Made by a program: the position numbers and the translations under genes. A model generated the notes under the pieces. It did not search any database. It saw nothing but the letters and a program-made list of their open reading frames with translations, and was not told where the DNA came from. 23,279 bases of DNA from Zoopage sp. CT-All. Taxonomy: Eukaryota; Zoopagomycota; Zoopagomycetes; Zoopagales; Zoopagaceae. Location of the stretch: assembly GCA_004114245.1 (NCBI GenBank), contig QZWS01000129.1:1-23279 (forward strand), read 5' to 3'. Positions 1-21,220 of the stretch are shown one piece after another. How positions within the stretch are numbered: the stretch's first letter is position 1; every line of letters begins with the position of its first letter.

Positions 1-424
1 CAAACTGTGAGGGCTCCAAGGTGGATCTGGTGAAGCTAGTATGTATTGGGACCAATACTGGTGTTGGTCAGATAGAGAAGAAAAGACTTGTCTGCTAACC
101 CTCACAGAGAGGACCACCCCACCAATCTGCTGGGGTGTGCTGGTGCCAAGGGACAAGAAGGGCATGCAGAAAAGCCACCAAGCCCTTGGTGGTGGGGAGT
201 TAGTGGATGCGGACATTGGCACCACAGCTTCCCTTGATGCTGCCCTTATCTCGCGTCAAACTTTCGGACAACACGCCTCGCCCTGGACTTAAGTAGCCAG
301 ATCTGCCTCGTGTGTTGTCATATATTGCTTTTAAAAAAACCGCCGACAAGAGCCTTCTCCGGTTGCATGAACAGGCGTCCAATGAGCGGGTTAATGTATT
401 AAAATCGGTCACCCTGCGTATTGG
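1..424. other. Gene-free left flank
   Basis: I see no supportable gene here. A short open frame at 41-292 has no recognisable domain and no homologous neighbour. The first 209 bases contain no CpG; after that CpG is normal. The segment ends where the left arm of the large palindrome begins. It may be old repeat DNA, but no terminal repeat or coding relic is visible. Confidence 0.5.
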
Positions 425-1395
425 GGCCCCCAATCATGCCTGATAAGTAGTAAAATACTCTAAAGGCCATGAGAGTGGCCTCAAGACTCTCAAGTCTTGT
501 TGGAGGGCTATGGATGCCCAGGCACAATAGTAGCAATGCTATGTATAAGCATTGCAAAGCATGCGCTGCCAATGTCAGGCCCACTCGGCACTTTAATTCC
601 CAAATATCTCCAGTCACATTGTCAACAGCATCAACCCTCCAGCACTTGTTAGATAATAATTATTACTAAACGCAGTATATTACATACAGATCTGCAGAAA
701 CTTGAACTACTATGCTTACCAACGGCCGCAGCACTAGGCAGCATGGTTATTATGGCCACTATTCATCTTCGCAACTAGTCGGGCTGATCGCCTTGATGGT
801 GGCCGCTGCATTGGCTGAGTCTCTACATAGCCGTTAGCATCATGCGATGCAAATACCGTGTCTTACCCTTCCGTCTTTGTTTCCGCTTGCTTTGTGACAC
901 TGTGGGTCGCAATGATTTTTGCAACGTATCACTAGCTTTGCCTAGAATCGTTAGGCAAGCTAACGCCATGGGAAATCATACCCGAGGCCACCAATATCTC
1001 TACAGCTTTCCGTAGCTCAGGATCATCGAAACCAGCATTCTCGTATATGTCGCTTAAAGAAGGAGCGTTGGCTAGGCGGCGCAAACCGTAGACGCACGGA
1101 ACCAAGCCACCAATTGTTCGGCGCCACACTGTCTTTCTCTTTACATCCACAAATACAGCGCCAGATTTGCGTGCTTTATCTTCATCGAATGCCATAGTCG
1201 TGCAAGCCGCGAGCATTGCCGGCTTTGACGGTTGCGGATTGACTGGGAACCAAGGAACCAGTGTACCCTCGATAAGGCCTCGTTCAATACGTTGTCGAAG
1301 CAGCGGCTTGTCGCGGCACATGGCGTCGATCTCTAAAAATAAGCAATGGGAATAATGAACAGCGCATACTTTCGAATCCCTTGGCGAGCAGGGGG
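425..1395. repeat. Left arm of a ~970-bp imperfect palindrome
   Basis: Read in reverse complement, this stretch matches 2105-3076 almost end to end. Shared blocks include the outer flank with a TTGAG/CTCAAG-type hairpin around 480-500, the segment with TATTACATACAGATCTGCAG near 677-696, and the whole of exons 2-4 of the gene inside. The arms differ by scattered substitutions and small indels, so this is an old duplication and not an assembly mirror artefact. The arms are separated by a unique spacer (about 1396-2104). Boundaries were set by eye and are good to roughly 10 bp. Confidence 0.85.
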
Positions 1396-1565
1396 CTGTC
1401 AGTATCGCTACCGCGTGCGGGGCCAGATGGTGGGGATGTGGCAGCTGTGGTCTCCGCTCTGATGCTCTCGGCCGCCGCCGAAGCCAATCGCGCACTCCGC
1501 CTCAAAATGGTCGCGGACGGTGTAGTTGGGGATATAATATGTCGGCGAGGTGTACGTGGTGGCAT
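734..1565 (-). CDS. Unrecognised nuclear-type basic protein, left copy (4 exons)
   Basis: Four exons on the minus strand: 1370-1565, 982-1332, 867-941 and 734-822 (introns 37, 40 and 44 nt). They sum to 711 nt, giving 236 residues. The start at 1565 is the first ATG giving the proline/arginine-rich N terminus MPPRTPRRH. Residues about 19-26 read LRRSARLA and a second copy of that motif, RRSARLV, lies near the C terminus. Between them is a conserved core of about 120 residues (KIDAMCRDKPLLRQRIERG onward, with WFPVNPQP and YENAGFDDPEL motifs). No catalytic motif or known domain is recognised. The paired basic SARL motifs suggest nucleic-acid binding, but that is inference. The paralogue at 2044-2768 shares every splice position. 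The last intron has a GCTAAC branch site. Confidence 0.62.
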
Positions 1566-2043
1566 TGCGGAGGGAGGGAGAGTGGTATTAGGTGATGGCC
1601 GGTGGTCGGCGCGGGCGGTGGAGTGGCGAGACCTGCCCAACCGTCGTGCATCTACGTGCCACCCACACGTGTAGGTCTTGCGAGTCCATTGTTTGTCCAT
1701 CTCCTTGCTGCTCGGCGTCCTGGACAATGCTGATGCTGATGGTTTCCTTCCACTTTAGCGGGTTGTTGGGTGGATTTGCTCCTGTACTTGAGACTCCAGG
1801 TTCCTGCACCCTCAATCGCCTCCCCGAGTCACCTCAGGCCAAAGGCATATATACTGCCTGAGATTCGATTGCAAGCTTTGTGGCAGGAATGCAGTTGCCT
1901 ATTATACGCAGCTCTACACTGCAATGCTAGCTGATCAATGAGTCATGTTGAATTTCATTGCTTCGGTGACGCCGCGTCCACTGAGCTACAACGTAAAGTC
2001 CAGCTGACTGGGCAAGTTCACCCTGGCGTGCTGCCGGTGATCA
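1566..2043. promoter_or_regulatory. Shared spacer/divergent promoter of the gene pair
   Basis: This interval separates the two divergently oriented paralogues and lies mostly in the unique centre of the palindrome. It holds a CACGTG E-box at 1666-1671, a TATATA run near 1850-1855 that could serve the rightward copy, and the first of two 18-bp direct repeats that contain a Gcn4/AP-1-like site. No coding region is supported: the open frame over 1592-1861 has no domain. Promoter activity is inferred only from position and motifs. Confidence 0.4.
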
Positions 2044-2055
2044 ATGAGTCATGTT
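1932..2055 (+). repeat. 18-bp direct repeat with ATGAGTCAT cores
   Basis: The 18-mer TGATCAATGAGTCATGTT occurs at 1932-1949 and again at 2038-2055, 106 bp apart, with no similarity just outside. Each copy contains ATGAGTCAT (1938-1946 and 2044-2052), the consensus bound by Gcn4/AP-1-type bZIP factors. The ATG of the second copy is also the furthest-upstream in-frame start of the rightward gene. It may be a paired regulatory site or the target duplication of an 88-bp insertion; the sequence alone cannot decide. Confidence 0.5.
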
Positions 2056-2768
2056 CTTGGACAGTCTGCGATATTATGTTGCCTCATTCCCATGTCCGTC
2101 GCCAGCCCACTTCTAGCCAAAGGATTCGAAAGTATGCGCTATTCATTATTCACATTGCTTATTTTTAGAGATTGACGCCATGTGCCGTGACAAACCGCTG
2201 CTTCGACAACGTATTGAACGAGGCCTTATCGAGGGTACACTGGTTCCTTGGTTCCCAGTCAATCCGCAGCCGTCAGAGCCAATACGGACCGCGGTTTTCA
2301 CGACTATGGCGTTCAAAGAAGATGTGGCACGCAAATACGATGTCGTATTTGTGGATGCAAAGAGGAAAACAGTGTGGCGCCGAGTGCGGGGTGGCTTGGT
2401 TCCGATTGTCTACGGTATGCGCCGCCTAGCCGACGCCCCTTCCTTGATCGACACGTATGAGAATGCCGGTTTCGATGATCCCGAGTTAAAGAGATTTGCA
2501 AAGATATTGGTGGCTCAAGGTATGATTTGCCACGGTTTTTGCTTGCTTAACAATTATAGCAAAAGCAAATGATATGTCGCGAAAGTCATTACTACCCACG
2601 GGGTCTCAAAGCAAGTGGAGTCAAAGACGGAAGGGTAAGGCACTGTATTTGCATTGCATGATGCTAACGGCTATTGTAGAGACTCAGCCAATGCAGCGGC
2701 CACCACCAAGGCAATCGGCCCGACTAGCTGCAAAGATGAATGGTGGCCATAATAACCGTGCTGCCTAG
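2044..2768 (+). CDS. Unrecognised basic protein, right copy (4 exons, different N terminus)
   Basis: Paralogue of the 734-1565 gene. Exons are 2044-2131, 2169-2519, 2560-2634 and 2680-2768, with introns of 37, 40 and 45 nt at the same codon positions as in the left copy. Exons 2, 3 and 4 have exactly the same lengths in both copies (351, 75 and 89 nt). From the ATG at 2044 it encodes 200 residues; from the in-frame ATG at 2092, 184. Homology begins only just before the first intron (SPLLAKGFE), so the N-terminal RRSARLA module of the left copy is missing, replaced by unrelated sequence. The C-terminal basic motif RQSARLAAK is kept. The core reads KIDAMCRDKPLLRQRIERG, again without a known domain. 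Maintained frame and splice sites suggest it is or recently was functional. Confidence 0.58.
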
Positions 2769-3076
2769 TGCTGCGGCCGTTGGTAAGCATAGCAACTCCA
2801 GTGTCTGCAGATCTGTATGTAATATACTGCGTTTAGTAATAATTGTCTGACAAGTGCTGGAGGGTTGATGCTGTTGACAATGTGACTGGAGATATTTTAG
2901 AATTTAAAGTGCCAAGTGGGCCTGGCATTGACAGTGCATGCTTTGTAATGCATATACATAGCATTGCTACTATTGTGCCTAGGCATCCATAGCCCTCCAA
3001 CAAGACTTGAGAGTCTTGAGGCCACTGTCATGGCCTTCAGAGCATTTACTACTTGTCAAGTTTGATTGAGAGCCCC
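2105..3076. repeat. Right arm of the imperfect palindrome
   Basis: Inverted copy of 425-1395. The arm contains most of the rightward paralogue plus about 300 bp of 3' flank. In that flank the left arm keeps CpGs where this arm has TpG or CpA: around 2905-2945 the left-arm CGAG and GCGCAT equivalents appear here as CAAG and GTGCAT. The gene-bearing part keeps its CpGs. The loss of CpG therefore starts just beyond the gene and continues into the flank. Confidence 0.85.
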
Positions 3077-4147
3077 ACCTGTAATGGTTAGCAAGTAGTT
3101 GTTACTTGGCCTGGTTCTAGGAATATTACCTTTTCCTCTGTTATGCCAATACCAGTATTGGGCCAGTATATTTATTCTCCCCTTACTATTGAGATATGGT
3201 AGCTACCTTTGAATAGTGTCATTTAGTAGTGTAGGCAGGTCATAAGGGAAATTGAGAGGGTAGAATAATATATATTGATTATACAATGTCATGGACAGAT
3301 TAGGAAATGCCTATTTTTTCCTATATTGTAGTGGAAATATATCAACTTCTATTAATCCTGCTCCCTGCTGCCTCAACACTATATATAGAAAAAGACAAGA
3401 CTGTCACTATAAGGGGTATGGCTCTAATATACTACTCTAAATAAAGCAAGCCAAGATATGTGTAAAAGAAAGAAAGTACTATAAGCTACAATATTGAATT
3501 CTGAATATCTATTGGAATTTTAGTAATATGAAATATTATATATTTTGCAGTAAAAGTGAAAATTTATAGTAGTTAGCATTTATCAAAAAATAATATGCCA
3601 TGCATTGAGCCTTGACTTTAATACAAGTACACATACTAAATACTAGTCCTAATATTTGGTTAGGCTAGGAATATCTACCTAGAGCTTAAGTTAAATCTCC
3701 TATTCTAATAAGGGAAAAACCATGGCTCTAGGTAATATGTTGGGTGTGGCTTGGGTGGCAGCATTGTGTAAGGGTTGTTCAAGTAATTGTCTGACTAAAG
3801 GTTAATGTGGAGCTTATCTGTATTGAAGACATGCTCAGTATCATAGCATCATGTGATCCACTGCTTAGCATTGATTGCAATGCAAAGTTCTACTAGGAAG
3901 GACTACCAGAAGCCTGCAGGAGCTATCAGTAGCATGTTATAGATGTGCTCAGTGTGTAACTTGGATGGTGATCAGGGTTGAATGAAAAAGAGAACTCTGA
4001 TCAGTGCACCCAAGACTAGACTGATGCTTCAGCTTCCAACACAGTGTGTGCTCAATAAATGCAGTAGATGCTGATGCCCCAAACAAGCATGTATGTCTTG
4101 TCCATGGCCTCATTAAGTCTGAGAAGACTGCCCCAGAATTGGTCCTG
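2832..4147. other. CpG-free AT-rich tract (1316 bp)
   Basis: I read every line and found no CG dinucleotide on this interval, whereas the flanking genes are rich in CpG. The tract is AT-rich, with many TpG and CpA, and holds no supportable gene. The signature is that of cytosine methylation followed by deamination in silenced repeat DNA. The tract ends at 4148, shortly before the PIG-Y gene. No LTR, TIR or coding relic could be recognised in 3077-4147. Confidence 0.75.
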
Positions 4148-20875: not shown

Positions 20876-21102
20876 GCGACGGGTGGCGGGAGTTGGGCGG
20901 GATGAGGATTAGGGGGGTGAGACGGCGCCCAGCGGAGATAAACGGGGTGGTGGCTGCATTGCTCTCTTTGACCTGCTCGTGGTGTAATAGGGCATGAAAT
21001 AGTATAACAGTGTTGCCTCTCTTATATTTATTGCTTGCGTAAGACTTTACCTTGGTCCCTTTACCCTGGACAAGCCAAGGTAAGACCATTTTCCCCATTT
21101 AA
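20876..21102. other. Dehydrogenase upstream region and 5S 3' flank
   Basis: No gene is seen. An inverted repeat TTACCTTGG (21047-21055) and CCAAGGTAA (21075-21083) could form a 9-bp stem with a 19-nt loop. It lies just beyond the 5S gene. The dehydrogenase promoter presumably overlaps this stretch. Confidence 0.35.
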
Positions 21103-21104
21103 AA
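21101..21104 (-). terminator. Pol III terminator of the 5S gene
   Basis: Four T residues on the minus strand follow directly after the 3' CGTAG of the 5S RNA. A run of four or more T is the RNA polymerase III termination signal. Confidence 0.7.
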
Positions 21105-21220
21105 CTACGACACCACGTATTCCCATGTCGTCCCCGACCATAGTACTGACGTGGCTGTCACTGGCTTAACTTCGCAGATCGGACGGGATGCGGTGCTTCT
21201 CAGTGCATGTGGCCGTAGTT
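21103..21220 (-). rRNA. 5S ribosomal RNA (118 nt)
   Basis: The minus strand reads like a fungal 5S RNA from end to end: AACTACGGCCAC at the 5' end, the highly conserved CACCGCATCCCGTCCGATCT, GAAGTTAAGCCAGTG (internal A-box region), AGTACTATGGTCGGGGACGA and ATGGGAATACGTGGTG (C-box region), ending CGTAGTT. The two ends pair to form helix I (AACUACG with CGUAGUU). Length is 118 nt, normal for 5S. It is transcribed by Pol III with TFIIIA using the internal control region. It stands alone, away from any rDNA unit, as is common for dispersed fungal 5S genes. All core blocks look intact, so it is probably functional. Confidence 0.93.

What the first reader, a model, noticed from the sequence alone, without database searches (positions are those of the whole stretch)
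425..3076. Palindromic locus carrying two divergent copies of an unknown gene
Two ~970-bp arms in inverted orientation each hold a copy of one four-exon gene, with exons 2-4 of identical length and identical splice phases. Neither copy is obviously dead. Such a palindrome could form a hairpin RNA by read-through, undergo arm-to-arm gene conversion, or be the product of a mobile or selfish element. No transposase, integrase or terminal duplication is visible. Of everything in the window this is the best candidate for an undescribed system.
Basis: partly seen in the sequence, partly recalled or inferred. Interest (0 to 1): 0.75.

Follow-up and report, generated by a model that had tools for sequence, protein, structure and literature searches.

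The report
Inverted pair from fungal gene family
Two back-to-back copies of a small unknown fungal gene sit in a real but ageing inverted repeat; elsewhere in the genome the same gene was found as single copies or a same-direction row of five, so the palindrome looks like one accident of a shuffling gene family rather than a dedicated system.

Summary
Arms 422-1398 and 2103-3077 are inverted, 86.5% identical over 979 aligned columns, and each carries a four-exon gene whose exons 2-4 are 351, 75 and 89 nt. The "undescribed palindromic system" reading does not hold. The host genome shows 10 copies: this pair, five head-to-tail on contig C259, and three singles, one broken. No other head-to-head pair was found.

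Compared with C259, the spacer is the promoter plus N-terminal part of a different, divergently transcribed gene. In the window that gene's body is replaced by an inverted copy of the family gene, fused in frame to the leftover N-terminus, so the left gene is a chimera. Outside a 355-bp central block the arms differ by 6%; inside it by 23%, and there the arms belong to two paralogue types: a conversion mosaic. Amino-acid change is constrained (dN/dS 0.44 between arms).

No relative of the protein was detected in the collections searched, but a control suggests poor coverage of this host. Function is unknown; a basic nuclear, perhaps nucleic-acid-binding protein is my guess.

The parts
422..1398 (-). 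left arm of the inverted repeat
   Evidence: 86.5% identity to 2103-3077
2103..3077 (+). right arm of the inverted repeat
734..1565 (-). left gene, chimeric, 237 aa; exons 1565-1370, 1332-982, 941-867, 822-734
   Evidence: spliced model open to the stop codon
2092..2768 (+). right gene, 184 aa; exons 2092-2131, 2169-2519, 2560-2634, 2680-2768
   Evidence: spliced model open to the stop codon
1399..1565 (-). spacer-derived coding piece of the left gene (56 codons); 43 of them align in frame with the N-terminus of a different gene (C259 about 1629-562), the first 12 are shifted by a 1-base indel relative to it; joined in frame to exon 1 of the family gene at 1398/1399
   Evidence: window 1398-1949 is 89% identical to C259:1519-2062; reading frames compared
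1566..2091 (.). shared divergent intergenic (promoter) stretch between the two modelled start codons
   Evidence: paralogous to about C259:1686-2098 apart from the insertion at 1950-2037
1950..2037 (-). SINE-like element of about 88 bp flanked by 18-bp exact direct repeats (1932-1949 and 2038-2055); absent at the paralogous C259 site
878..1232 (-). central block of the left gene, type A (nearest to the C409 copy, 88%)
2269..2623 (+). central block of the right gene, type B (94% to C259 copy 2, 91% to copy 4, 77% to the left arm)
487..605 (+). dispersed-repeat fragment in the left arm (its counterpart in the right arm is 2896-3013)
   Evidence: 12 matched places, both window copies included; alignment of 8 of them

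Best explanation
The locus is an inverted (head-to-head) duplicate of one member of a small, apparently lineage-restricted fungal multigene family. SHOWN: ten copies detected in the genome (two here, five in direct tandem, three single), a common splice pattern with nine open copies and one broken; the spacer and the left N-terminus are paralogous to the promoter and N-terminal part of a second, divergently transcribed gene next to the C259 array; patchwork identity between the arms; excess of synonymous change. INFERRED: an ancestral divergent pair [other gene <- shared promoter -> family gene] existed here as on C259; an inverted copy of the family gene with its 3' flank overwrote the body of the divergent neighbour and joined its N-terminal piece in frame; ectopic conversion with a paralogue replaced the central block in one arm; a short SINE-like element landed in the shared promoter. 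Mechanism of action, as a commitment: each open copy is an ordinary protein gene for a small, very basic protein (pI 9.9-10.8 in the eight copies computed), probably nuclear and nucleic-acid- or chromatin-associated (guess, about 40%); the palindrome itself does no work.
For: Ten exon-2 places by protein search of the whole genome at E <= 10; tandem array and singles; 9 of 10 copies open under the splice model, C38 broken (the left window copy with its own exon 1). Window 1398-1949 is 89% identical to C259:1519-2062, where the other gene lies on the strand opposite to the array. In-frame junction and 237-aa open chimera. Central block 23.1% against 6.3% elsewhere, 0 of 200 shuffles as extreme; in the central-block tree of 9 copies (C38 left out) the right gene falls with C259 copies 2 and 4, split from the other six with support 100. 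dN/dS below 1 in 36 of 36 pairs of the nine open copies, range 0.20-0.66; one-sided Fisher tests on 6 chosen pairs p = 1e-5 to 0.015. pI and hydropathy.
Against: No relative genome could be compared, so the order of events is inferred from paralogues in one genome. The tree of the gene parts outside the block does not recover the two window genes as sisters; its deep nodes are unresolved (supports 25 and 30), although they are the most identical pair there (94%). Which arm received the block is unresolved. The 43 comparable captured codons show no significant constraint (pN/pS 0.46, p = 0.10), so the chimera may not be used. No RNA evidence. Protein function rests on composition only; the fold model is too poor to use (mean pLDDT 43.6).
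Confidence: 0.75

Rival explanations
1. Hairpin RNA source: the locus is transcribed across both arms into a long fold-back RNA that Dicer cuts into small RNAs silencing the other family members, as in the inverted-duplication model for plant microRNA genes.
For: The arms share 7 exact runs of 28-74 nt, 301 nt in all. The genome encodes a Piwi domain and a Dicer-dimer domain. Sequence-similar possible targets exist.
Against: The genes diverge from the spacer, so their own transcripts are both sense; a hairpin needs transcription entering from outside through one gene in antisense. Codons evolve under constraint in both arms, unexpected for a pure hairpin gene. The most divergent part lies in the middle of the arms.
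Confidence: 0.07
2. Mobile element: the palindrome is a foldback or TIR transposon, or the family gene is carried by one.
For: Copies lie on 5 contigs; the outer arm part is a dispersed repeat; the left junction abuts another repeat.
Against: The arm-spacer-arm unit was found once. Single copies share the gene and short flanks but not the outer repeat. No target duplication at the outer ends. Copies sit beside different neighbours. In an alignment of 8 copies, four copies of the dispersed repeat seem by eye to run on beyond the arm end, which suggests that the arm end is a break inside it.
Confidence: 0.05
3. Diversifying poison-antidote or similar selfish gene family analogous to fission-yeast wtf genes, with the divergent neighbour on C259 as partner.
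For: Multicopy, recombining mosaic family with different N-termini; a divergent partner gene on C259 whose C-terminal half has a PD-(D/E)XK-like motif by eye only.
Against: No hydrophobic segment of transmembrane strength in the 8 copies computed (highest 19-residue Kyte-Doolittle mean 0.83), unlike wtf proteins as I recall them. One match only for the neighbour in the genome, and no convincing family, structure or homologue match. dN/dS is below 1 in all 36 pairs. Population data are absent.
Confidence: 0.05
4. Assembly artefact: the second arm is a false inverted copy.
For: Fragmented assembly (419 contigs); the palindrome begins 422 bp from a contig end.
Against: The arms differ by 13%, and the right central block matches other contigs better than the left arm; chimeric copies would be expected to be near-identical.
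Confidence: 0.03

Closest known systems
Divergent paralogous gene pairs in long inverted repeats of Caenorhabditis (PMC1803023; abstract and one results section read)
   Same: Homologous genes in head-to-head orientation inside a long inverted repeat; patchwork identity along the genes; pairs duplicate; arm identity ranges widely (one C. briggsae pair has intergenic arms at 81.6% once an insertion is set aside).
   Different: There the inverted repeat extends through intergenic sequence and the structure recurs across species. Here the spacer is not palindromic and derives from another gene's 5' part, and no other copy of the family found here is paired head to head.
wtf spore-killer family of fission yeast (PMC13160552; outline and abstract read)
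   Same: Multicopy fungal family diversified by recombination among copies.
   Different: No transmembrane-like segment here; no evidence for drive or for poison and antidote products.
Inverted-duplication origin of plant microRNA genes (PMC3237417; search listing only)
   Same: Inverted duplicate of a protein gene whose arms could pair.
   Different: Here both arms look like constrained coding genes transcribed away from each other.
Y- and X-chromosome palindromes with arm-to-arm gene conversion (PMC3723533, PMC8981503; search listing with start of abstract only)
   Same: Inverted arms with gene conversion.
   Different: Those arms exceed 99% identity through arm-to-arm conversion; here the clearest tract makes the arms differ and points to a paralogue elsewhere.

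Membership tests
Caenorhabditis-type inverted paralogous gene pair | divergent homologous genes in a long inverted repeat | tested here: met
Caenorhabditis-type inverted paralogous gene pair | inverted repeat extends through the intergenic sequence | tested here: not met
   arms start inside exon 1; the 704-bp spacer is not palindromic and derives from another gene's 5' part
Caenorhabditis-type inverted paralogous gene pair | inverted structure kept in related species | not testable with these tools
   no relative genomes held; among the 8 other copies in this genome no head-to-head pair
TIR or foldback transposon | whole unit dispersed, with target duplication | tested here: not met
   unit found once; longest word shared by the two 25-bp flanks is 4 bp, not flush with the ends
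wtf-like spore killer | transmembrane protein (recalled) | tested here: not met
   highest 19-residue Kyte-Doolittle means 0.56-0.83 in the 8 copies computed; left window copy and C38 not computed
wtf-like spore killer | two products from alternative starts; killing of non-carriers | not testable with these tools
   no RNA or cross data
hairpin small-RNA locus | one transcript spanning both arms, diced | not testable with these tools
   machinery domains present; orientation unfavourable
APSES/KilA-N DNA-binding domain | profile match of the family's exon 2 | tested here: inconclusive
   hmmscan lists no KilA-N; hhalign against 5 APSES/KilA-N sequences gives probability 4.3% over 19 columns, score 19.5, above all 60 column shuffles (highest 18.0)

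The most novel reading that the evidence does not exclude
The divergent neighbour on C259 (PD-(D/E)XK-like by eye) and the family gene form a two-gene selfish or conflict module driven from one shared promoter; the amplified, recombining family genes are partner or antidote proteins, and the window locus is a derived state in which the nuclease-like body was lost and replaced by a second antidote-type gene wearing the nuclease gene's N-terminus.
Probability: 0.04. Interest if true: 0.8.

Novelty: new member of a known kind. Interest (0 to 1): 0.3.

Why it matters
It is a compact example of how inverted duplication can overwrite a divergent neighbour and make an in-frame chimeric gene, inside a fungal gene family without recognised relatives that diversifies by swapping a central block. 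The family itself, rather than the palindrome, is what would deserve follow-up.

Tried and rejected
Hypotheses tried. (1) APSES/KilA-N resemblance of exon 2 (patterns noticed by eye): hhalign probability 4.3%, score above all 60 column shuffles but over 19 columns only; not established. A first hhalign run used wrongly oriented translations of three loci and is void; one search found the right orientation for two of the three (L064, L065), the third (L066) gave no segment and was dropped. (2) Fold prediction of exon 2 with 9 family rows gave mean pLDDT 43.6, and of the C259 neighbour alone 33.6; neither was sent to fold search. (3) PD-(D/E)XK identity of the C259 neighbour: motif by eye only; Pfam, NCBIfam and PDB gave only weak chance-level matches or none, and none of 162 candidates scored E <= 1. 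(4) Homologue searches of the family: 0 of 3880 scored candidates; 0 of 56 pattern stretches in viral contigs; 0 of 87 in prokaryote contigs; two PDB hits at E 0.44 and 0.48; one Pfam hit, DUF494, E 0.086, in 1 of 5 members, and CheR_N at E 0.17, below its cut-off, for the right exon-2 frame; all taken as chance. Control: the Rxt3-domain protein of this window found 1 hit, 31% identical, with only the best 7997 candidates scored, so absence of homologues is weak evidence. (5) The small-subunit rRNA search for host identity never ran (tool busy), so the host is only called a fungus, from Mbp1-type APSES genes (that this type is fungal is recalled).

Full report
What is there. The window is the whole contig C377 (23,279 bases) of an 8.62-Mb, 419-contig genome. 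The host is taken to be a fungus because it has Mbp1-type APSES genes (that these are fungal is recalled). Arms 422-1398 and 2103-3077 are inverted and 86.5% identical over 979 aligned columns, around a 704-bp spacer. Each arm holds a four-exon gene with short GT..AG introns of 37-45 nt in phase 1; exons 2-4 are 351, 75 and 89 nt in both. The right protein has 184 aa, the left 237 aa.

The gene is a family. A DNA search with the right arm and a protein search with exon 2 find the same ten gene places: this pair, five copies in one direction on C259 (about 2.1-6.9 kb), and one each on C409, C230 and C38. Contig C400 begins with 55 bp that match the 3' flank of the gene (85%), so an eleventh copy may be cut off by that contig end; its arrangement is unknown. 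The other rows are pieces of the dispersed repeat in the outer arm. The tool calls such counts lower bounds. Nine of the 10 copies are open: the left window copy with its own exon 1; C259 copies 2 and 4 lack the common start codon but have an in-frame ATG two codons upstream; copy 2 has a 12-nt in-frame deletion and copy 5 a changed C-terminus. C38 has a deletion that breaks the frame. None of the 8 copies outside the window is in a head-to-head pair. The singles have different neighbours, judged by eye: a kinase-like ORF near C230, a folylpolyglutamate-synthase-like ORF near C38, a helicase-like stretch near C409.

Where the palindrome came from. Window 1398-1949 is 89% identical to C259:1519-2062, and a further 64 bp (92%) lead on C259 into the first tandem copy. 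On C259 this stretch is the shared 5' region of the array and of a different gene on the opposite strand, a 356-aa open frame whose C-terminal half has one match in the genome, itself. In the window only its N-terminal part remains: of 56 spacer-derived codons of the left gene, 43 align in frame with that gene and the first 12 are shifted by a 1-base indel. At 1398/1399 the sequence passes in frame into about codon 5 of exon 1 of the family gene. I infer that an inverted copy of the family gene with its 3' flank replaced the neighbour's body. The outer ends of the arms lie at the edge of a dispersed-repeat fragment that in four other copies seems, by eye, to continue outward, and the left junction abuts a second repeat also found on C190 and C361. 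No target duplication flanks the palindrome: the two 25-bp flanks share at most 4 bp, not flush.

Mosaic evolution. Over 926 aligned columns with 118 differences, the arms differ by 23.1% in a 355-column block (right 2269-2623, left 878-1232) and by 6.3% outside. The chi-square of 55.5 was not reached in any of 200 shuffles (maximum 23.8). In the block the right gene is 94% and 91% identical to C259 copies 2 and 4 and 77% to the left gene, while the left is nearest to C409 (88%); the block tree of nine copies separates the two types with support 100. In the gene parts outside the block the two window genes are each other's most identical relative (94%), but the tree of those parts does not recover them as sisters and its deep nodes are unresolved (25, 30). 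I read this as ectopic conversion or recombination among paralogues; which arm received the block is not resolved. C259 copies 1 and 2 share a tract at the start of exon 2 (99% in an 80-column window).

Coding constraint. dN/dS is below 1 in 36 of 36 pairs of the nine open copies (0.20-0.66; exon 1 but for its last 10 nt left out); left-right is 0.44. One-sided Fisher tests on six chosen pairs give p between 1e-5 and 0.015, left-right 5e-4. For the 43 comparable captured codons pN/pS is 0.46 but not significant (p = 0.10). Intron differences between copies are mostly lower than dS, which a simple neutral-intron picture would not predict and which short introns and recombination may explain; averages over a recombining family are approximate.

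Function. No convincing sequence relative was found: Pfam, PDB, 3880 scored candidates in the large protein set, viral and prokaryote contigs. The control suggests poor database coverage of this host. Eight spliced proteins have pI 9.9-10.8, with C-terminal 55 residues at 11.5-12.0, and no hydrophobic segment of transmembrane strength. I therefore guess a nuclear, nucleic-acid- or chromatin-associated protein. The structure model is unusable. A faint APSES/KilA-N signal is above 60 shuffles but far below significance.

Hairpin question. Piwi and Dicer-dimer domains exist in the genome, and the arms share seven exact runs of 28-74 nt. But divergent genes yield two sense transcripts; only a transcript entering from outside would fold back. 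Coding constraint on both arms also argues for protein genes.

Verdict. What remains is a recombining fungal gene family, without relatives in the collections searched, with one inverted, chimera-making duplicate. The kind is known (inverted paralogous pairs, e.g. PMC1803023, abstract and one section read); this is a new member of that kind.

Noticed in passing
window 1932-2055: An ~88-bp SINE-like element with a tRNA-A-box-like motif and a TCAAT-type tail (both by eye); 39 other matches in the genome (40 candidates scored, so a lower bound). The window copy has 18-bp exact direct repeats; of the 7 other places examined, 3 show 17-19 bp repeats near the ends, 1 shows 11 bp, and 3 show none convincing.
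   Followed up: partly
L009 (C259) 562-1632, minus strand: 356-aa open frame with repeated Ala/Ser/acidic segments near the N-terminus and a TDVSV..AIEIKR stretch resembling a PD-(D/E)XK core by eye; one place in the genome, no convincing database match.
   Followed up: partly
L015 (C400) 1-55: Contig start matches the 3' flank of the family gene (85%): possibly an eleventh copy cut off by the contig end.
   Followed up: partly
window 356-428: Matches C190 and C361; the C190 stretch looked reverse-transcriptase-like by eye, but the one frame given to a tool had 4 stops, so unconfirmed.
   Followed up: partly
window 1-108: The start of the contig is a repeat with over 20 matches elsewhere in the genome; the right flank 3078-4000 is also repeat-rich (47 rows, itself included, 40 of 86 candidates scored).
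   Followed up: no
window 21102-21220: 5S rRNA gene on the minus strand (Rfam, 99.3 bits).
   Followed up: no
window 2056-2094 and the same place in other copies: A short block around CAGTC..C(G)AT just upstream of the start codon is shared, by eye, by about 6 of the 10 copies, perhaps a promoter or initiator element (alignments).
   Followed up: no
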